DNA from: Succinivibrio dextrinosolvens
Lineage (GTDB): Bacteria; Pseudomonadota; Gammaproteobacteria; Enterobacterales; Succinivibrionaceae
Assembly (NCBI RefSeq): GCF_011065405.1
Contig: NZ_CP047056.1
Coordinates: forward strand, 1,262,747 to 1,326,746
Reading direction: 5' to 3'
DNA: 64,000 nt
In this document: one piece after another, positions 4,479 through 14,526 of the stretch
Layout of the letters: each line of letters begins with the position of its first letter
Numbering within the stretch: the stretch's first letter is position 1
Translations under genes and position numbers: made by a program
Notes under the pieces: generated by a model
The model's database searches: none
The model's input: the letters and a program-made list of their open reading frames with translations, nothing else
Told to the model about the DNA's origin: nothing

Positions 4479-5507
4479 TTATTTACTAGATAGTAATAGA
4501 GTTGTAATGGCTTGCGCTATTTCAGAATCAGGTTCATTCTGTTCTAGCCACAACCAGTTGCCGACAACATTAGCCTCTAAAAAAACAATACGGTTATCTG
4601 TTGTTTCAACAAAATCAATAGCAGCGAAATATATATTCCAGTATTTAACTAATGCAATAATCTTATTTTTCACATTCTCTTGCAGTTCACATTTTTCAGT
4701 TCTAAGATCATCAACACGCCTGAAATCAGTTTTAGACTCCACTCTCTCCTGAGAATAAATTCGATAAGAAAAGCATTTATCTCCAACAACAGTAACTCTT
4801 ATCTCAGACCTCTTATCCAACGCCTCCTGAATAAGTACTGGAGCACAGCCTTTCCCTAAGTAATCATCAATGTCATCTAAATCTGACTGTCTGATTAAGC
4901 TTGTATAAAAGCCTTTGAATTCATAATCATCAAAACCATCCTCAGTAACAACAGAAATCTTATCAATAATTGAAACATCACTCATCTGCTTTATAATGAT
5001 CTTTCCATTATGATTATTAAAAAAATTTCTGACACTATCCGAGGAGTTGGTCACCAAGGAGTCCGGAACCTCTAGATTAAACTTTAAAGCACATTGATGC
5101 TGATATATCTTATTATCAATCTTTTCTTCGAGATAAGGATCGTTAATCCAGATGCAGCTGTCAGGGACTAATGAAAAAAATCCTCTTAGAGCAGATTTAT
5201 TCTCAAAAGTTGCAAGCTGCTCAGCTGTTGAACTTTCATCTTTTGCAGGGGGATAGTAAAAACTTCTACAATAAATTCCTTCAATATCTTTTGATGAAAC
5301 AATCTTTCCATCAGGAAAGATCAGTTTTCCTTCAGTACTCCCTATTTCAATTGAAATAAGCTCTCTTCTTTCAATATATTCCCTTGAACCATACTCTTCA
5401 AATAAAGAAGAAATATCAAAACGTCTAACCTCAGCCCCTCTTTCTTTTAAATAATAAAGCACAGCATCAGCATGTACATCCTCATCCATTGCCAAAATAA
5501 GATACAT
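4479..5507 (-). CDS. Graspetide-type ATP-grasp ligase (MvdC/MvdD-like)
   Basis: A 342-residue ATP-grasp enzyme. The layout follows microviridin-type ligases: WINDPYLEEKIDNKIYQ at 120-136, a nucleotide-binding lysine in KIIIKQM near 173, IQEALDKRSEIRVTVVG at 226-242, TDFRR at 260-264, AIDF near 296, and the C-terminal FLEANVVGNWLWLEQ at 309-323, a variant of the family NPxGQWxW motif. Known members make ester or amide links between Asp/Glu and Ser/Thr/Lys side chains of a precursor peptide. Last gene of a unit with the JAMM peptidase, a small protein and a TerB-like protein. The substrate is unknown, so protein rather than peptide modification is possible. Confidence 0.8.
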   Translation of the reverse strand: MYLILAMDEDVHADAVLYYLKERGAEVRRFDISSLFEEYGSREYIERRELISIEIGSTEGKLIFPDGKIVSSKDIEGIYCRSFYYPPAKDESSTAEQLATFENKSALRGFFSLVPDSCIWINDPYLEEKIDNKIYQHQCALKFNLEVPDSLVTNSSDSVRNFFNNHNGKIIIKQMSDVSIIDKISVVTEDGFDDYEFKGFYTSLIRQSDLDDIDDYLGKGCAPVLIQEALDKRSEIRVTVVGDKCFSYRIYSQERVESKTDFRRVDDLRTEKCELQENVKNKIIALVKYWNIYFAAIDFVETTDNRIVFLEANVVGNWLWLEQNEPDSEIAQAITTLLLSSK

Positions 5508-5548
5508 TAAGAATAACTCCTTATTTACTTAATCAATTAACAGTGTGC

Positions 5549-6016
5549 TTATAAAATTTGGTATTCAACTTTAAAAATACCTATCAATTTTTCTGGAGAT
5601 AGATTCTCAATATTTACAGAAAACCAATCACTCAAAATCGAGAATAACTTGAAATATATAATTGAGGGAAAACCTTTATATTCATGTAAAACGTCTCGTA
5701 GCTTATTCTGTAATCCATTATGAAAATCTGTTTTCTTTATTATCAAGATCTTGTTATCAGCAAAGAGTGCTGTATAGGTGGCTTTCGAAGTAAAAAAACA
5801 AAGCCAATCATCAAATGAAAACACTAGATTTCCGTTTGGATGAGAGTGCCAAATAAAATCACTTTTATCCTCAACATAAGCAGAAAATTCATCTCCAGCC
5901 AAAAATGAAAAGGAGCCATCATCAAAGATGGCTCCAGAACATTCAATTTTACGATTTAGGACGAGTTGTCTGATTTTTAATAATGAGGATTCGTATTTAC
6001 AGGAACCAAAAATCAT
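5549..6016 (-). CDS. JAMM/MPN+ (JAB) metallopeptidase-like protein
   Basis: A 155-residue protein. The full JAMM metal and catalytic set is visible: Glu25 in IECSGAIF, then H57-S-H59-P with seven residues to S67 and D70 (HSHPNGNLVFSFDD). JAMM peptidases cleave isopeptide or peptide bonds C-terminal to ubiquitin-like modifiers, and bacterial ones also process toxins, sulfur carriers and phage tails. It lies 19 bases after the small-protein gene and 41 bases before the ATP-grasp ligase, all on the minus strand, so the two enzymes probably act on a shared substrate. The C-terminal 70 residues are not recognised. Confidence 0.75.
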   Translation of the reverse strand: MIFGSCKYESSLLKIRQLVLNRKIECSGAIFDDGSFSFLAGDEFSAYVEDKSDFIWHSHPNGNLVFSFDDWLCFFTSKATYTALFADNKILIIKKTDFHNGLQNKLRDVLHEYKGFPSIIYFKLFSILSDWFSVNIENLSPEKLIGIFKVEYQIL

Positions 6017-6035
6017 TAAAATGACAATATATTAT

Positions 6036-6293
6036 CTACTTATTTACCCTACGATCCCATTTGCCATTTACTACTTTTGAGGGAACCCATTTATTGGAAG
6101 GAGTTCGATGGGCAGGAACCCTATGGGCGCTTGTATAAACATTTGAATAACGTTTTGTTGTCACTTTCCATGATAAAGAGCCATCTTCAAAAATATTCAT
6201 CTGCTTATCTTCATCAAAGCGGGCTTCATTACTATCGATTGGAGCTGAATTTAGCAAAGAGGCAAATTTATACAAAAAAGGTTTTTTATTCAT
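6036..6293 (-). CDS. Small basic-tailed protein, candidate substrate of the ATP-grasp/JAMM pair
   Basis: An 85-residue protein I do not recognise. The N-terminal half is acidic (DSNEARFDEDKQMNIFEDG, about residues 22-40); the C-terminal half has many Ser, Thr, Lys, Arg and Trp and almost no Asp or Glu. ATG 6293 is preferred over 6299 because GGAG lies seven bases upstream. The start is inside the last codons of the TerB-like gene (ATGAATAA overlap), so translation is coupled. Its size and position beside the ligase make it the best precursor candidate, but no classical graspetide core repeat such as TxxTxxExxD is present. Confidence 0.6.
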   Translation of the reverse strand: MNKKPFLYKFASLLNSAPIDSNEARFDEDKQMNIFEDGSLSWKVTTKRYSNVYTSAHRVPAHRTPSNKWVPSKVVNGKWDRRVNK

Positions 6294-6726
6294 GATCATT
6301 CTCCAGGTCGAATTTCAAGTTTTGTTGATCTTTAACAGCATTTAAAAGTGCAACACTAGATAAGGAAGGCTCTAAGCCAAATGACTCTCCGAGTAAATGA
6401 ATAACGCTAACTTCACTAAAAGTAATTTCACCATCACTGATCGCGATCTTTGCTAAATCCTTCAAAATATCAAAGCTATCAACATCGTCAATTTCAAGAT
6501 TTCCTAAAGTAATATCCTGATCACTCTCAACAGTATTTTCTGATTCGCTTGCATCAATAAACTTATCTAAATAAGTCTTGATTAAAGTTTCACCCTCAAA
6601 CCAATCAAAACCGTATTTCTCAAAAATAAACTTTGAAGAATCAAGCTCTGTCGAATCAATCTTTCCATCTGCAAAGATTATAAAAGCGCAGGCTTTTGCT
6701 AGATGTTTTAACGTTTCTGTTGCCAT
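6286..6726 (-). CDS. TerB-like (tellurite-resistance family) helical protein
   Basis: A 146-residue, very acidic protein. Two helical units each carry an acidic loop, IIFADGKIDSTE (about 17-27) and KIAISDGEITFSE (about 93-105), which is the pattern of TerB/DjlA-N domains where such loops can bind metal. A Ser/Glu/Asp-rich linker (about 59-83) separates them. TerB proteins occur in stress islands with TerD, ATP-grasp and peptidase genes. First gene of the four-gene unit, with AGGAG seven bases before ATG. Function here is inferred only from the domain and neighbours. Confidence 0.65.
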   Translation of the reverse strand: MATETLKHLAKACAFIIFADGKIDSTELDSSKFIFEKYGFDWFEGETLIKTYLDKFIDASESENTVESDQDITLGNLEIDDVDSFDILKDLAKIAISDGEITFSEVSVIHLLGESFGLEPSLSSVALLNAVKDQQNLKFDLENDHE

Positions 6727-6843: not shown

Positions 6844-7716
6844 TTAACATTTAGTATTTAAATGATTCTCAATATTAATTATTGCAGCCTTTATTTCATT
6901 CAATTCCTTATTCAGCATAACAAGTTGCTCTTTCAATAACATTTCAGATTCAACACTATCTACATCGCTATTTGAGTCTTTAGAATCGTTTTCAATCTGT
7001 TTATCTGGACTTTCTTTATCTAAATTTGCTAATTCTGAATCGATTTCACTCATGGCACTAACAATCACACCAACAAAAAGATTCAACATAATAAAAGTAT
7101 TTAACAGAATAAAAAAAACGAAATATATATAAGCATATTCATGTTCATTGAGAATAGAGCGAGCTAGATCTGCCCAGCCTTCAAGAGTCATTATCTGAAA
7201 CAATGTAAAAAAGCTTCTTCCGATTGTTCCAAAATAATCATCAAATACATCTCCAAAGAAATTCGTTCCAATAACAGAAAACAAATATAGGTTTATTAAC
7301 ACTAAAAGAGACAGCCATCCAATACTTGGAATAGATTTTAATAGACTTACAATGATTCTTCTTAAAGGCTTGAAAGCAGAAAAAACACGGAAAAGACGAA
7401 GAATTCTTAAGCCTCTTAGAATACTTAGAGAACCATTTGCTGGAGCTAATGATAACGTAACTATCAGTACATCAAAAACATTCCAGCCATTTTTCCAAAA
7501 TCTTCCGCCCAAGGCAATCTGCTTCAAAACTAATTCTGTAACGTAAATACATAAGACAATTGTGTCAAACCATTCAAGATAATTTCTTAAGCTCGTTGGT
7601 AGATTTTTGGAAGTCTCTATTCCTAAAGAAATAGCATTAAGAATAATAATAGTAACAATAAAAATCTGAATATTTTTATTAAATATAAATCTACATTTTG
7701 TCTGTAGTGATGACAT
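6844..7716 (-). CDS. Bacterial voltage-gated cation channel (NaChBac/BacNaV-type, possibly Ca2+-selective)
   Basis: A 290-residue six-helix channel. S1 starts near residue 15, and S4 has arginines at 101, 104, 107 and 110 (RGLRILRLFR). The pore filter is T177-L-E-G-W-A-D183, followed by S6 (about 196-222). A C-terminal acidic linker leads to a predicted coiled coil (about 256-287), typical of BacNaV tetramers. Sodium channels of this family read TLESW at the filter; the Gly and the final Asp here are calcium-channel-like features. ATG 7716 is chosen over 7749 because GAGGGG sits six bases upstream. Confidence 0.9.
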   Translation of the reverse strand: MSSLQTKCRFIFNKNIQIFIVTIIILNAISLGIETSKNLPTSLRNYLEWFDTIVLCIYVTELVLKQIALGGRFWKNGWNVFDVLIVTLSLAPANGSLSILRGLRILRLFRVFSAFKPLRRIIVSLLKSIPSIGWLSLLVLINLYLFSVIGTNFFGDVFDDYFGTIGRSFFTLFQIMTLEGWADLARSILNEHEYAYIYFVFFILLNTFIMLNLFVGVIVSAMSEIDSELANLDKESPDKQIENDSKDSNSDVDSVESEMLLKEQLVMLNKELNEIKAAIINIENHLNTKC

Positions 7717-8000
7717 AAATTCCCCTCGGAATCTTATTTTTGAAAACATAAAGAAAAAATTTCCTACGGATTAAGAGATGATCTTATTTTTAGTTATATT
7801 GAATTTTGTGTACGCTTAAATATATTTACATAACGATCGATTTTTATTTGAATAACAACACCACAGAAAAAAGCTCACAGCCTAAATATAAAAAAGCTAA
7901 TAAATAAGCACGGAATCGTTAACTGAGCCAAAGTAATTTTTATAAAATCAAAAAAAGAAGCTAAAAAATATAAACAAATAAACAAAGAATAAAAATAGCA
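7717..8000. other. AT-rich intergenic region upstream of the channel gene
   Basis: About 280 bases with no convincing open frame. It must hold the minus-strand promoter for the channel gene, and it ends at the terminator of the upstream module-protein genes. I see only runs of A and T and no clear operator. Confidence 0.5.
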
Positions 8001-8062: not shown

Positions 8063-8356
8063 CTACTTTAAAGATGCAAGAGTTGCCTTGTCGTCTGCAA
8101 GTTCGCCTTTCTTGTTTTCGATCTGAATCTTAACAGCAAAAGCTTCCATAAAAGCTTTTTCTGCATTGCCAACTCTGGTATTACCATGAAGTTCAAAATC
8201 ATCGCTCTTCTTTGCTGGCTCACCATCTCTAATTGAAGCTAGAGTTGCACTATCTTTTGCAAAGTTAATTTTGTGGTATACACGAACACCAACACCGAAT
8301 TCGTCTTTAAACATTTCCTTAAACTTTGCAACTGTTATTCTTCCATTTACTTTCAT
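8063..8356 (-). CDS. Two-module small protein, copy 1
   Basis: A 97-residue protein made of two copies of one module. Module 1 (about 1-45) contains FKDEFGVGVRVYH and ends ATLASIR at 37-43; module 2 (about 52-97) contains AFMEAFAVKIQIE and ends ATLASLK at 91-97. Each module reads as strand, helix ending in F-x3-F, two alternating hydrophobic strands, then the D-x-ATLAS tail, which could be a small beta-alpha-beta-beta (ubiquitin-like) fold; that is inference. I recall similar unnamed small proteins in other bacteria. It is a close paralogue of the next upstream gene, also visible at DNA level, so the duplication is recent. Confidence 0.8.
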   Translation of the reverse strand: MKVNGRITVAKFKEMFKDEFGVGVRVYHKINFAKDSATLASIRDGEPAKKSDDFELHGNTRVGNAEKAFMEAFAVKIQIENKKGELADDKATLASLK

Positions 8357-8395
8357 AATAAAACTCCCTAAATAAATACTAATTAAACAAATTAA

Positions 8396-8728
8396 CTATT
8401 TAAAAATACTCGAAATAAATTTCTTAATTCCCTGTAATTTTAAAGAAGCAAGAGTTGCCTTGTCGTCTGCAAGTTCGCCTTCTTTATTTTCAATTTGAAT
8501 TTTTACAGCAAAAGCGTCCTTAAAAGCTTTTTCTGCGTTGCCAACCTTTGTAAAAGCATGGATTTCAAAATCATCGCTCTTTTTTTTAGGCTCTCCTGCT
8601 CTAATTGAAGCAAGGGTTGCATTATCTTTTGCAAAATTAACTCCATGATAAACACGAACTCCTACACCGAATTCGTCTTTAAACATTGACTTAAACTTAC
8701 CTACAGTCGTTCTACCGTTTACTTTCAT
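8396..8728 (-). CDS. Two-module small protein, copy 2 with C-terminal extension
   Basis: A 110-residue paralogue of the downstream neighbour, nearly identical through both modules (FKDEFGVGVRVYH with ATLASIR, then AFAVKIQIE with ATLASLK). It differs by a 13-residue C-terminal tail, LQGIKKFISSIFK, which would form a short basic amphipathic helix and might touch membrane or a partner. There is no signal peptide, so it is probably cytoplasmic. It lies 22 bases after the larger module protein and is probably in one operon with it. Confidence 0.8.
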   Translation of the reverse strand: MKVNGRTTVGKFKSMFKDEFGVGVRVYHGVNFAKDNATLASIRAGEPKKKSDDFEIHAFTKVGNAEKAFKDAFAVKIQIENKEGELADDKATLASLKLQGIKKFISSIFK

Positions 8729-8750
8729 AATTATCCAAAATAAACAAACG

Positions 8751-9482
8751 TTACTTACTCAAATCAGCTAATTTAAGATCATCTGAAACAGGTTCTTTAT
8801 TTTCTGCAATAAATTCAACACCAAGACCATATGTCTTACGGAAGTTAGCTTTAATCTTAGAAAGAGGCTCTGTAACCTTTAGAGCAACAATTCCATATTT
8901 CTTTGCTAGTTTTCCATCTTCAGAACAATCCTTTAAATTACCAGCAGGATCTGCAAATGCAGCCCATCTACCAGAACTAATTTTCCCAGTGCCAGATAAT
9001 TTGTAGACCTCTACTTTTGCTCCATAAGTTGACAAAAATGCATTTTTAAAAGCACCTACTGAAGTAGACTCTCTTAAAGGTACACACAGTGGCACAACAT
9101 CCGGCTGAGCCTCCTTTACCTGCTTTAAACTTAACTCGTTTCTAGCTAAATCCTTTACGTCAGGATTAAATATCTGAATACCTATACCGAGTTCATCTGC
9201 AAATCTTTTTTCTACATCACCAACTAATTCATCTTCTTTAATAAAGATTTTCTTAACCTTATTTACTTTCTGATCCTGTGATACATCAATAAGAACTTCA
9301 CCTTTGTCAGCAGGACGAGCTCCTGTAGATGTCAGAATTTTTCCATCATTTGTCAGTCTGTATACTTTTACAGGAACAGAAAAAACAGATAAAAAATTCT
9401 GTTCAAAATCTATTACCTTAGTGCCAGGAGCAACTTCCATCTCCAAATAGCCTCTAATTTTCTTAAAAAAACCGCCGAACAT
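8751..9482 (-). CDS. Four-module protein of the same family
   Basis: A 243-residue protein with four diverged copies of the module. The recognisable cores are FEQNFLSVFSVPVKVYR, VEKRFADELGIGIQIFN, FKNAFLSTYGAKVEVYK and IKANFRKTYGLGVEFIA. The N-terminal MFGGFFKKIRGYLE is hydrophobic and basic, like the tail of the 110-residue paralogue. First gene of the three-gene unit. The ATG is preceded by eight more A bases, with GGAG 13 bases upstream, an unusually long spacing; an internal ATG at 9440 is the alternative start. I do not know the function. Confidence 0.78.
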   Translation of the reverse strand: MFGGFFKKIRGYLEMEVAPGTKVIDFEQNFLSVFSVPVKVYRLTNDGKILTSTGARPADKGEVLIDVSQDQKVNKVKKIFIKEDELVGDVEKRFADELGIGIQIFNPDVKDLARNELSLKQVKEAQPDVVPLCVPLRESTSVGAFKNAFLSTYGAKVEVYKLSGTGKISSGRWAAFADPAGNLKDCSEDGKLAKKYGIVALKVTEPLSKIKANFRKTYGLGVEFIAENKEPVSDDLKLADLSK

Positions 9483-10517: not shown

Positions 10518-11228
10518 ATGTTATATAAAAGAAAGCAGATTATAAATAAGGTAGATAGATTTCTTAATAACAGTAATACTGAGAAATTTATTATAGTCCT
10601 CATTCTACTCAACATAGTGTGTTATATACTTTCGACTGTTGATGAAATTGAATTCGTCACGGAATCATTCTTCTCATATTTTGATTTAGTGTGTGTCATT
10701 ATCTTTTCTATTGAATTTATTTTAAGAGTACTCTCATGTAAGTCTTTAAAGCAGTTATTCTCTCCTATGATGATTATTGATTTTATTGCAATTGCTCCTT
10801 TCTATTGTGGACAATTCTTTAATAACAGCACTGTATTTCTTCGCGTGGTTAGAATATCTAGACTTCTAAGGCTTGCTAAATTAGCTCGTTACTCAAGAGC
10901 TTTAAAAAACATACAGGTCGCCTTTAAACAAAAGAAAGAAGAATTAGTAATTACCCTCGCGTTCTTTTGTATTAGCGTAGTCATTTGCGGGATCCTAATG
11001 TACCTATTTGAACATAATGCTCAACCAAGTGTTTTTTCTTCAATTCCGAGAAGTTGTTATTTTGCAATTGTTACTTTTACCACTGTGGGTTATGGGGATT
11101 TTTCGCCAATCACAGAAGAAGGAAGATTTATTGCTTCTCTTATGGCTGTGTTAGGAGCTTGTATTCACGGTCTTGTTATTGGAGTAATAAGTACAGCAAT
11201 CAGTTCCGCATTAAAAGTTAGTAAATAA
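10518..11228 (+). CDS. Voltage-gated potassium channel
   Basis: A 236-residue six-helix channel. S4 has a regular arginine ladder (LRVVRISRLLRLAKLARYSR, about 108-127), and the K+ filter TTVGYGD is at 188-194. S5 lies near 144-163 and S6 near 203-228. There is no C-terminal ligand-binding or RCK domain, so gating is probably by voltage alone. No good ribosome-binding site precedes the ATG in this AT-rich leader. It shares an island with a BacNaV/CaV-type channel on the other strand. Confidence 0.93.
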   Translation: MLYKRKQIINKVDRFLNNSNTEKFIIVLILLNIVCYILSTVDEIEFVTESFFSYFDLVCVIIFSIEFILRVLSCKSLKQLFSPMMIIDFIAIAPFYCGQFFNNSTVFLRVVRISRLLRLAKLARYSRALKNIQVAFKQKKEELVITLAFFCISVVICGILMYLFEHNAQPSVFSSIPRSCYFAIVTFTTVGYGDFSPITEEGRFIASLMAVLGACIHGLVIGVISTAISSALKVSK

Positions 11229-11913: not shown

Positions 11914-14526
11914 TCAGCCATAACGACCAGAACCTGTCTTTCTTACCAGAACAACAGAAAATGCCAGCATCAGAATACAGCCCACAATACTTAAGATATA
12001 TCTCCACATTGGCAGAGGTTTTGTGGCATTACTGTAGGTATTGATGAAATCACCTATATAACAGCCACGAGGAGAGCAGTTTACACTCCTTCCCATTTCT
12101 CCCTGCGTATACCACAGATGTTTAGGAAATTTGGTATAAGCCTGATATTTATCTAGTTTCTGATTAGCCTGTCTTACGAAAGTATTCATAAACTCAAGAA
12201 GAGCCTTAGGATCAGAAGAGAATCTCTTAATATCGTTATAAGAGATCCCCGGCTCAATGTTAACAACGCCATCAGGGGCAAACAGACTGCCTTCAAACTT
12301 TATATCATCAATGATCGTTCCGTCTCTAACCGCATCAAGACAGATTACAGATTTACTTGAGATAGAAGCCTTATCCTTAACAATGAAAGTCTGACTTTCT
12401 CCATTGGTCAGATCAAGCTGACCGCCTCTGCTAAGATCAAGAATCTCTACCACAGAATTATGGTTTCCCTTTGGAGAATCAATGAAAACAGAGGAATCCT
12501 TAATATAAAGACGGTTAAGATTGATTAAGCCGACAATATCGCTCACACCGCCGTAACTTAACAGATTGATGGTCTTACCGATGATATTACCTTTGATTTC
12601 GACATGGGATTTATTGTCAGCAATCAGATTATCAGATGAAAAATCCTTAGCTTTATTCTTTTTCTTAACGCCTAGATTAATGTTGGTTGCAAGTTTTTTA
12701 ATGAAGAAAGGAACATTAAGTTTATCTCCATAGGCTGCATCAAAATGAAGTTTTCCAGCAAGAAGCTTTGGATTATAGGCCTTTGAATAGAATGAATTAC
12801 CATCAGGAGATACATAATAATTCCACTTGGAAACTATATCACCATAAATCTTCGCCTTATTGGTGATATTTATATCTCCAACATGAGCAGTGTCATCAAT
12901 ATATATGGAGTATTTTCTGCCTGTAATCTTTCCTGAGATGTTCAGAGTCGATACCAGAGGTCCTCTGATATTGTTTGGAACATTGTAACTTTCAGCCTGG
13001 TCTTTAGGAATTTTTCTCTGAAGATAGTCATAGGTGCGAACCCTTCTATATGAGCCACGAAACTCCTTTAAATCTGACAGGACATTTGAACCAAAATCAA
13101 AGCGAAGAGCTGTTCCGTCAACACCATTAGCTTCAACTTCACCGCTGATATCTATAATATTGTTCCTTCCATATGTTACCGCGATACCGGTTGCTGACTC
13201 ACCATTTTCGATAATAGACGCTGATTTAGGAACAATAATCCTGTTTCTGGATCCGTCAATGCGTATACCAATACTTCCAAATCCCTGACTGGCAATAATT
13301 CCAGACTGAGTAACGTCATTGTAGCTACCATAGACATGAGTTGCAATTGAAAGAGGAACTATTGAAGCCTTATCCTGCTTGAATGTTCTGAACTCCCCAT
13401 TACTAGCTGTAAACGAGGAAGTAATATCGTATATTCCCCTGTTTTCCGGAGTTCCAGAGTTATAAATAGATGTACCAAAGAATTCGCTGGCATTGATGTT
13501 ATATCCAAGATCTCTGAACATCTCCAGTTCTGCTTGATTGTAAAAGCCGTAATTTATATAGGAAGAACCTGAAAGAAGAGTGTTACTTAGATTAAATTTT
13601 GGGAAGCCGCTCTTTGTAAAATGAATACTGAATCTATTCTTGGAGGAAAAATCACTCAGACTCTTTATCTTTTTTCCATTAGCTAAAAGTGACTCAGTGT
13701 TCTCTCCAACAAACTTGAAGTGACAGGTGGATATTGAATCATAGACACAGTTCTTCTGCATATCAGAGAATCTGGTATTTTCTGTTACAAAAGTATTATT
13801 ACCGGTCAGGTGGTAATCGAAAGTTGAGAGAGGAGAACTGAAACCAACCTGATTATGACTAGAGTACATGCCAATAAGAGAGGCAAAGGTTAAAAACAGT
13901 TTATGCGATAAAGATTCCTTAATACCATTTTCAGGAATCAGTCTAATTCTGTATTTAGAACTGAACAGACCAATGTCAGGATTGTAGTTAATCTCCACCA
14001 GACCGAAACTGTCACGGTTGTTAATTGCACAGATGTTTTTCAGGCTTGACTCAAAATAGCCCATTCCTGCACATAAATTTGAGGCATTATAATGCTGATC
14101 AAATGCTCTTGATGATCTGTCATTGTCCGTACTTGCGACAAAAGGTACGTTAAAAGACTGGTTGTCTGCAACATATCTTCTGAAAAGAAAGGAAAGAATA
14201 GAGGAGGCATTAACCCACGTCATTTTCGATGGAGAAAACTCCAGAGATCCTTTCTTAGAAGGAACTTTTATTCCTTTGGCACGTACAGTAAAAAGCTCTT
14301 TAATTTCATCATCATCAGTAACAACATATGGTCTGAAAAGAGAATTTCTACTTACAAAAATCTTGTCAGATTCTTTCAGATCAGAGAAAAGTCTGTGAAT
14401 ATCGTGGTGTTGGTAGTTTGTTGAAGTCTGTGAAGGATATGTTGAAGAGTCAGAACTAGCCATGGCCTGATGCTGATACATCAGACCACACATAACTATT
14501 GCTGTTACAGTTTTAGCATCAATCAC
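11914..14526 (-). CDS. Autotransporter-passenger-like surface protein without beta-barrel
   Basis: An 870-residue protein with an N-terminal signal-like segment ending ...QAMASSD and a C-terminal hydrophobic segment (about 841-861) followed by VRKTGSGRYG. The middle resembles passengers of large autotransporters: AELEMFRDLGYNI, then FFGTSIYNSG, then YGSYNDVTQSG, GIAVTYGRNN and TALRFDFGSN, which build beta-helix repeats. The roughly 280-residue outer-membrane barrel expected at the C-terminus is absent. Translation starts at GTG 14526, eight bases after the L,D-transpeptidase stop, so the two are coupled. Probably an envelope protein held by its C-terminal helix. Exact role unknown. Confidence 0.7.
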   Translation of the reverse strand: MIDAKTVTAIVMCGLMYQHQAMASSDSSTYPSQTSTNYQHHDIHRLFSDLKESDKIFVSRNSLFRPYVVTDDDEIKELFTVRAKGIKVPSKKGSLEFSPSKMTWVNASSILSFLFRRYVADNQSFNVPFVASTDNDRSSRAFDQHYNASNLCAGMGYFESSLKNICAINNRDSFGLVEINYNPDIGLFSSKYRIRLIPENGIKESLSHKLFLTFASLIGMYSSHNQVGFSSPLSTFDYHLTGNNTFVTENTRFSDMQKNCVYDSISTCHFKFVGENTESLLANGKKIKSLSDFSSKNRFSIHFTKSGFPKFNLSNTLLSGSSYINYGFYNQAELEMFRDLGYNINASEFFGTSIYNSGTPENRGIYDITSSFTASNGEFRTFKQDKASIVPLSIATHVYGSYNDVTQSGIIASQGFGSIGIRIDGSRNRIIVPKSASIIENGESATGIAVTYGRNNIIDISGEVEANGVDGTALRFDFGSNVLSDLKEFRGSYRRVRTYDYLQRKIPKDQAESYNVPNNIRGPLVSTLNISGKITGRKYSIYIDDTAHVGDINITNKAKIYGDIVSKWNYYVSPDGNSFYSKAYNPKLLAGKLHFDAAYGDKLNVPFFIKKLATNINLGVKKKNKAKDFSSDNLIADNKSHVEIKGNIIGKTINLLSYGGVSDIVGLINLNRLYIKDSSVFIDSPKGNHNSVVEILDLSRGGQLDLTNGESQTFIVKDKASISSKSVICLDAVRDGTIIDDIKFEGSLFAPDGVVNIEPGISYNDIKRFSSDPKALLEFMNTFVRQANQKLDKYQAYTKFPKHLWYTQGEMGRSVNCSPRGCYIGDFINTYSNATKPLPMWRYILSIVGCILMLAFSVVLVRKTGSGRYG

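What the first reader, a model, noticed from the sequence alone, without database searches (positions are those of the whole stretch)
4479..6726. Four-gene ATP-grasp ligase / JAMM peptidase / TerB unit
The sequence shows, in one tight minus-strand unit, a ligase with the graspetide-type architecture (FLEANVVGNWLWLEQ end motif), a JAMM peptidase with its full metal site (E25, H57, H59, S67, D70), a small coupled protein and a TerB-like protein. Graspetide ligases normally travel with a precursor and a transporter or acetyltransferase. A ligase paired with an isopeptidase-type JAMM enzyme suggests a reversible or processed conjugation, perhaps a stress response as for Ter islands. I do not recall this exact set as a described system.
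Basis: partly seen in the sequence, partly recalled or inferred. Interest (0 to 1): 0.8.

Follow-up and report, generated by a model that had tools for sequence, protein, structure and literature searches.

The report
Graspetide-like operon with JAMM and TerB
A gut bacterium carries a compact four-gene unit that probably ties a small basic protein into a cross-linked form with an ATP-driven ligase and processes it with a metal-dependent protease, a pairing that would be new for this class of modified peptides and that in sister copies sits beside antiviral-type genes.

Summary
Window 4479-6726 (-) holds TerB, an 85-aa protein, a JAMM protein and a graspetide-type ATP-grasp ligase, overlapping or 19-41 bp apart. 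A second complete unit lies elsewhere in the same genome, a third in another genome of the genus; a fourth copy has TerB, 85-aa and JAMM, with no ligase on its short contig or found in its draft genome. The ligase is a divergent graspetide synthetase, not a metabolic enzyme. The JAMM site E-Xn-HSH-X7-S-XX-D is intact in 4 of 4 copies. In three of four copies the genes follow a KAP NTPase and a type IIG restriction-modification gene, pointing to a defence setting; I saw no exporter beside the units. Best reading: a graspetide-like module with two additions, JAMM and TerB, that no paper listed by my searches describes. Cross-linking, JAMM substrate and function are inferred.

The parts
6286..6726 (-). 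TerB-domain protein, 146 aa, acidic (pI 4.2)
   Evidence: Pfam PF05099 30.5 bits, cut-off 24.4; pI; present in 4 of 4 copies
6036..6293 (-). 85-aa basic protein (pI 10.1), proposed graspetide-type precursor; its start overlaps the TerB stop by 8 bases
   Evidence: no hit in Pfam or NCBIfam at E<=1
6264..6281 (-). leader motif PFLYKF (Phhx(1,2)h), residues 5-10 of the 85-aa protein
   Evidence: PFLY[KR]F in 4 of 4 copies; motif as defined in PMC8939145; shuffle test
5549..6016 (-). JAMM/MPN+ metalloprotease-like protein, 155 aa
   Evidence: AF2 models poor
5807..5944 (-). JAMM metal/catalytic site E25...H57-S-H59-X7-S67-XX-D70
   Evidence: E25, H57, H59, S67, D70 invariant in 4 of 4 copies; motif definition from abstract of PMC300881
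4479..5507 (-). ATP-grasp ligase of the graspetide-synthetase class, 342 aa
   Evidence: TIGR04187 E 2.4e-43, TIGR04185 1.2e-40, TIGR04184 1.2e-39; PDB 5ig9 2.9e-23, CdnC 7mgv 2.6e-21
4539..4583 (-). FLEANVVGNWLWLEQ segment with E311 and N313, by recall part of the ATP-grasp metal site
   Evidence: K133, K173, R237, R263, D298, E311, N313 shared with the four distant relatives aligned

Best explanation
A graspetide-like protein-modification module whose product probably stays inside the cell. The ligase recognises the N-terminal PFLY[KR]F leader of the 85-aa protein and uses ATP to join Asp/Glu side chains to Ser/Thr/Lys side chains of the same protein (esters or amides, 18 Da lost per link). 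TerB, acidic and probably translationally coupled to the basic 85-aa protein, is a partner that holds or presents it. The JAMM enzyme, a metal-dependent (iso)peptidase, processes the product: it removes the leader or re-opens a link. The unit is cargo of a defence-type island; in three of four copies it follows a KAP NTPase and a type IIG restriction-modification gene in one operon-like array. Shown: gene order, families, intact catalytic residues, recurrence, purifying selection on the 85-aa frame, leader motif. Inferred: substrate identity, cross-linking chemistry, TerB binding, JAMM substrate, defence role.
For: Ligase class; catalytic residues shared. Leader motif at residues 5-10 in 4 of 4 copies; the motif is described in about 50% of graspetide precursors: passages of PMC8939145. 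Recurrence: complete unit in 3 copies from 2 genomes. In 56 genomes of the family, clear hits for JAMM, TerB and the 85-aa protein fall in the same 3 genomes, for the ligase in 2 of those 3. Block exchange: between L015 and L073 the upstream KAP protein is 89% identical while TerB, 85-aa and JAMM are 59, 58 and 33% identical, as if the genes behind KAP were swapped together. TerB/85-aa spacing -8, +2, +2, +4 bases in the four copies; opposite charge (pI 4.05-4.17 against 10.01-10.06 in the three copies computed). JAMM. Defence context: type IIG REase-MTase E 6.5e-302, KAP hits to PDC-S20, PifA, QatA (L015 copy), Pfam; the same two genes by BLASTP in L006 and L073. Low GC (0.28-0.36 over 4-12 kb; 0.39-0.42 over 0-4 kb, 0.37-0.39 over 12-16 kb, 0.41-0.45 over 16-20 kb). 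TerB also occurs in the anti-phage systems Shango and Bunzi, JAB in CBASS II and ISG15-like systems (passage of PMC10952713).
Against: The fourth copy (L073) has a second KAP NTPase where the ligase should be, and no ligase was found in that genome even at E<=10; the genome is 88% complete in about 440 contigs and the contig ends inside that gene, so absence is not shown. The broad leader motif occurs within the first 20 residues of 6.4% of shuffled versions; the tighter microviridin-like form (11 of 100,000) was chosen after seeing the sequence. The 85-aa protein shows no leader/core contrast: it is evenly conserved, has few acidic donors (four invariant: D20, E36, D37, D80), no core pattern known to me and no model hit. 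No exporter or C39 peptidase was seen in the ORF lists around the units, although many graspetide clusters have such genes. In the window copy the KAP and restriction genes are absent. The JAMM fold is not firmly supported by structure.
Confidence: 0.5

Rival explanations
1. Reversible conjugation: the ATP-grasp enzyme attaches the 85-aa protein, or an amino acid or peptide, to other proteins, and the JAMM enzyme removes it, by analogy with pupylation or ubiquitin-like systems.
For: The JAMM motif underlies isopeptidase activity in Rpn11 and Csn5 (abstract of PMC300881); ligase and JAMM are neighbours in 3 of 4 copies; the 85-aa protein is rich in Lys/Arg and strongly constrained.
Against: C-terminal residue not conserved, no GG/Gln/Glu tail; no E1/E2-like gene among the neighbours scanned; the ligase belongs to an intramolecular cyclase class and the small protein has its leader motif.
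Confidence: 0.2
2. TerB, the 85-aa protein and JAMM form a three-part module (partner of a KAP NTPase, or a toxin with its antidote and activating protease), and the ligase is an accessory gene that does not act on the 85-aa protein.
For: The fourth copy keeps these three with two KAP genes and no detectable ligase, and these three seem to be exchanged as a block behind a conserved KAP gene; even conservation of the 85-aa protein; degraded ligase copies persist alone at one locus in two genomes.
Against: Ligase directly follows JAMM in 3 of 3 complete units, and between window and L015 it is about as diverged as its neighbours (64% against 54-65%); leader motif; the contig of the fourth copy is cut.
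Confidence: 0.22
3. Unrelated island genes that happen to be neighbours.
For: AT-rich region with other cargo such as ion channels and repeat proteins.
Against: Same order and similar spacing at two chromosomal places and in other genomes, with proteins only 33-65% identical between window, L015 and L073 copies.
Confidence: 0.04

Closest known systems
Graspetide (microviridin-type) gene clusters, ligases MvdC/MvdD, CdnC, AMdnB
   Same: Ligase class and catalytic residues; small adjacent protein with Phhx(1,2)h leader motif near its N-terminus
   Different: JAMM and TerB partners, no exporter or C39 peptidase seen next to the unit, evenly conserved precursor with few acidic donors, curated subfamily cut-offs not reached
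Partner protein-dependent graspetides (rosaritide MirC, corallotide CorD; PMC13097080)
   Same: A co-encoded partner protein is proposed here for TerB, as shown there for MirC (abstract, section 7 and passages seen)
   Different: The MirC partner is a predicted PPIase; the words TerB, JAB and JAMM do not occur in that text
Bacterial JAB/JAMM deconjugation systems in defence (CBASS type II, ISG15-like)
   Same: JAMM protein in a defence-type setting (passage of PMC10952713)
   Different: No E1/E2 or ubiquitin-like tag seen here; ligation would be by ATP-grasp
Shango and Bunzi anti-phage systems
   Same: TerB domain (PF05099); an NTPase partner in the sister loci, as recalled for Shango
   Different: Other genes differ; PADLOC matched this TerB only to PDC-S48 at E 2.3e-4

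Membership tests
Graspetide biosynthetic cluster | ATP-grasp ligase of the MvdC/MvdD class | tested here: met
   E 2e-43 to 1e-39 against three maturase models; best PDB matches are ligases of this class. Curated subfamily cut-offs are not reached, so it is a divergent member.
Graspetide biosynthetic cluster | Adjacent small precursor with leader motif Phhx(1,2)h | tested here: met
   PFLY[KR]F in 4 of 4 copies; weak statistically on its own, 6.4% of shuffles
Graspetide biosynthetic cluster | Core with conserved acceptor (S/T/K) and donor (D/E) residues | tested here: inconclusive
   Invariant D20, E36, D37, D80 and several S/T/K, but no pattern known to me and no enrichment over other residues
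Graspetide biosynthetic cluster | Dehydrated, cross-linked product | not testable with these tools
   needs mass spectrometry
JAMM/MPN+ metalloenzyme | EXnHS/THX7SXXD motif | tested here: met
   E25, HSH57-59, X7, S67, XX, D70, ligands invariant in 4 of 4 copies; definition
JAMM/MPN+ metalloenzyme | Similarity to the Prok-JAB family | tested here: met
   profile-profile E 1.3e-5, 0 of 200 shuffles; single sequences below the Pfam cut-off or without a match
JAMM/MPN+ metalloenzyme | JAMM fold | tested here: inconclusive
TerB (PF05099) | Pfam model above cut-off | tested here: met
   30.5 bits window, 28.2 bits L073, cut-off 24.4
Ubiquitin-like or Pup-like conjugation system | Tag with a conserved C-terminal residue | tested here: not met
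   last residue K/H/H/R in the four copies
Ter (tellurite) island | TerB beside other Ter family genes | tested here: not met
   none among the 10 window proteins scanned nor the neighbours scanned in L015 and L073; the rest of the window was not scanned
Known anti-phage system (PADLOC) | Match of the unit to a defined system | tested here: inconclusive
   ligase and 85-aa protein no hit; TerB to PDC-S48 E 2.3e-4; JAMM to JAB E 0.0096; neighbours in L015 are strong defence matches

The most novel reading that the evidence does not exclude
A switchable intracellular graspetide: the ligase locks the 85-aa protein with side-chain cross-links, TerB holds it, and the JAMM enzyme hydrolyses those same cross-links (an erasing enzyme for a graspetide), releasing or disarming an effector that works with a KAP NTPase in phage defence.
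Probability: 0.13. Interest if true: 0.88.

Novelty: new variant of a known kind. Interest (0 to 1): 0.6.

Why it matters
Graspetides are mostly studied as secreted peptides (recalled). A graspetide-type ligase coupled to a JAMM metalloprotease and a TerB partner, with a constrained precursor, no exporter beside it, and a defence-operon address in sister copies, would extend this chemistry to intracellular regulation or immunity, add JAMM to the proteases of RiPP pathways, and make the role of TerB domains in defence systems directly testable with a four-gene E. coli experiment.

Tried and rejected
Ubiquitin-like repeat proteins upstream (8063-9482) as tags for the JAMM enzyme: dropped from the unit, because an ion-channel gene lies between and I saw nothing like them beside the unit in L015, L006 or L073; the weak ubiquitin/Rad60-SLD matches of one of them (E 0.055 and 0.022) are below cut-offs, and PDB gave nothing under E 0.1.

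Wider distribution: JAMM profile in 197 genomes of the order (own genome only) and 398 of the phylum (own genome plus G438 at E 0.0018, which is antisense to an 806-aa frame with a stop inside, rejected as chance). 85-aa profile in 398 genomes of the phylum: own genome plus one E 0.009 hit with three stops, rejected. Ligase in 369 genomes of the class: own plus 7 genomes with distant ligases; none of those 9 loci holds a JAMM motif within the 1.5 kb flanks. JAMM, 85-aa and ligase scans of viral contigs found no relative; JAMM in plasmids and phages none; 85-aa in plasmids one E 0.7 match, ignored. Ligase relatives in plasmids: 66 records, all under 60% identity, and 2 phages; their neighbourhoods were not read. 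In the family searches, weak matches from E 0.003 to 0.1 (five other genomes for JAMM, four for TerB, one for 85-aa, and one further weak place each in G000 for JAMM and TerB and in G232 for 85-aa) were dropped; of these only the G232 place was looked at. An 85-aa match at E 0.56 in G000 lies beside sugar-biosynthesis-type genes and was dropped.

Structure: two AlphaFold2 runs with 3 and 4 sequences gave pLDDT 56; Foldseek against PDB: best E 0.22. PDB sequence searches: JAMM alignment, two chains at E 0.026 and 0.25 with no stretch passing (nvBagel4, a cell surface protein), taken as chance; single JAMM copy none at E<=10; TerB alignment none at E<=0.1.

Literature. Listings only: 171 papers, 20 listed, polluted by terbium and terbinafine; 11; 19, 15 listed; 59, 15 listed; 3; 17, 8 listed; 2; 335, 15 listed; one returned none; one search listed 30 of the 37 papers that hold 'graspetide'. 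None listed describes this gene set by title or abstract start, but unlisted ones were not seen. By whole-word search only two papers of the library hold both 'ATP-grasp' and 'TerB'; in the one opened, PMC7824862, the passages do not join them. Passages seen in PMC8939145, PMC13097080, PMC13003496, PMC10885120, PMC10952713 and PMC7824862; section 7 of PMC13097080 read; abstract and outline only of PMC300881. By word search PMC8939145 holds neither TerB nor JAB (JAMM not asked), PMC13097080 none of the three, PMC10885120 neither JAMM nor JAB (TerB not asked). The amidoligase paper PMC3268129 is not held and was not read; it may discuss such neighbourhoods.
Full report
What is there. On the minus strand of window 4479-6726 four genes run TerB (6286-6726), an 85-aa protein (6036-6293), a JAMM protein (5549-6016) and an ATP-grasp ligase (4479-5507). 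The 85-aa start overlaps the TerB stop by 8 bases; the other gaps are 19 and 41 bases. The region is AT-rich (GC 0.28-0.36 from 4 to 12 kb, against 0.39-0.42 over 0-4 kb, 0.37-0.39 over 12-16 kb and 0.41-0.45 over 16-20 kb; the rest of the window was not profiled), beside housekeeping genes (apolipoprotein N-acyltransferase and others, named by recall from their sequences), and looks like a horizontally acquired island.

The ligase. NCBIfam graspetide maturase models match over nearly the whole length (TIGR04187 E 2.4e-43, TIGR04185 1.2e-40, TIGR04184 1.2e-39), against 6.6e-9 for the RimK family and weaker for LysX, glutathione synthase and other metabolic enzymes; none of the curated cut-offs is reached. 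The best solved relatives are 5ig9, CdnC, 5ig8 and AMdnB, at E 2.9e-23 to 7.6e-19 (that 5ig8/5ig9 are microviridin ligases is recalled). Residues K133, K173, R237, R263, D298, E311 and N313 are shared with the four distant relatives that I aligned, out of the nine distant places.

The small protein. It has no family match at E<=1 (the L015 copy has a sub-threshold Pfam match to PRKCSH_1, E 0.0027, 17.8 bits against 23, which I take as chance). It is basic (pI 10.01-10.06) while TerB is acidic (pI 4.05-4.17), and between the two closest copies it has the lowest dN of the four genes (dN/dS values 0.015/0.229; ligase 0.045/0.225, JAMM 0.051/0.236, TerB 0.074/0.195); other comparisons have dS above 1.4. 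Its residues 5-10 read PFLY[KR]F in 4 of 4 copies. Graspetide precursors carry a leader motif Phhx(1,2)h, PFFARFL in microviridins where it binds the ligase, often within the first 30 residues; the motif was found in about 50% of precursors (passages of PMC8939145). The broad motif occurs by chance within the first 20 residues of 6.4% of shuffles, the microviridin-like form PFhx[KR]F in 11 of 100,000, the latter being a pattern that I chose after seeing the sequence. Against a classical precursor: conservation is even along the protein, acids and Ser/Thr/Lys are not preferentially kept, and only D20, E36, D37 and D80 are invariant acids. The last residue is K, H, H or R, which speaks against a ubiquitin- or Pup-like tail.

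Other copies. The same genome has a second complete unit at G000:C1 2.47 Mb, 64, 54, 64 and 65% identical for 85-aa, JAMM, ligase and TerB. In 56 genomes of the family, clear matches to JAMM (E<=2e-38), TerB (E<=2.1e-51) and 85-aa (E<=5e-32) are in the same three genomes, G000, G231 and G232; the ligase is in two of them. In G232 the contig (6,723 bases) reads restriction-modification, KAP, TerB, 85-aa, JAMM, and then a second KAP gene that runs off the end; no ligase was found in that genome at E<=10, which is 88% complete. Between L015 and L073 the first KAP protein is 89% identical but TerB, 85-aa and JAMM only 59, 58 and 33%: the genes behind KAP look exchanged as a block, which supports a functional set of at least these three. 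Decayed ligase copies without the other three genes sit beside the same 587-aa AAA-type gene (99% identical) in G000 and G231.

Context. In the second, third and fourth copies the unit follows a KAP NTPase and a type IIG (MmeI-like) restriction-modification gene (families by profile in L015, and for both KAP genes of L073; the L006 and L073 counterparts by BLASTP at 62-98% identity), with spacings of 9-15 bases where I measured them (L015, L073). In the window copy an ion channel (Pfam Ion_trans) lies 117 bases upstream instead. TerB domains occur in Shango and Bunzi, and JAB domains in CBASS II and ISG15-like systems (passage). I saw no exporter or C39-type peptidase among the adjacent reading frames (ORF lists, read by eye and only partly scanned).

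How it most likely works. The ligase binds the PFLYKF leader and cross-links side chains in the rest of the 85-aa protein; TerB, made from an overlapping or abutting gene and of opposite charge, holds it, as the partner MirC is required for rosaritide (PMC13097080, abstract and passages); the JAMM enzyme trims or re-opens the product. The lack of an adjacent exporter, the constrained sequence and the restriction/KAP neighbours suggest an intracellular role, perhaps in phage defence. Only the anatomy is shown; the chemistry and function are inferred. I put 0.5 on this reading, 0.22 on a TerB-85aa-JAMM module in which the ligase is accessory, and 0.2 on intermolecular, reversible conjugation.

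Novelty. No paper listed by my searches joins a graspetide ligase with JAMM or TerB (several lists were capped), and the graspetide surveys and the review of RiPP leader proteases that I word-searched do not hold the words asked for. An older paper on amidoligase neighbourhoods is not held. I class the unit as a new variant of a known kind, rare so far: one genus among the genomes sampled.

Noticed in passing
window 8063-9482 (-): Three consecutive genes (97, 110 and 243 aa) that share repeats of roughly 45 residues (VGKFKSMFKDEFGVGVRVYH..., ADDKATLASLK), seen by eye; weak ubiquitin/Rad60-SLD matches of the longest are below cut-off.
   Followed up: partly
window 6844-7749 (-) and 10518-11228 (+): Two ion channels (Pfam Ion_trans) in the same AT-rich region; the first lies 117 bp upstream of TerB and may share its operon.
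   Followed up: partly
G000:C1:329677-330600 (L014) and G231:C126:2356-3324 (L013): A ligase copy with a stop inside and no TerB, 85-aa or JAMM beside it, next to the same AAA-type gene in two genomes and followed by RecC/RecB-like genes (named by recall): a remnant of an older unit.
   Followed up: partly
L006 160-3248 and L015 11086-13743: The MmeI-like restriction-modification frame in L015 matches its model only from position 127 of 912; in L006 a separate short upstream frame weakly matches MmeI_N (E 0.03, below cut-off), so the nuclease part may be broken.
   Followed up: partly
L073 3-995 (-): A second KAP NTPase, about 30% identical to the first, overlaps the JAMM gene by 13 bases and takes the ligase's place.
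   Followed up: partly
L015 9079-11070 against L073 2228-4207: KAP proteins 89% identical while the three genes behind them are 33-59% identical: a sharp drop that looks like block exchange of a cassette.
   Followed up: partly
window 11914-14526 (-): 870-aa protein with no Pfam match at E<=1 that looks like an autotransporter passenger (impression only).
   Followed up: no
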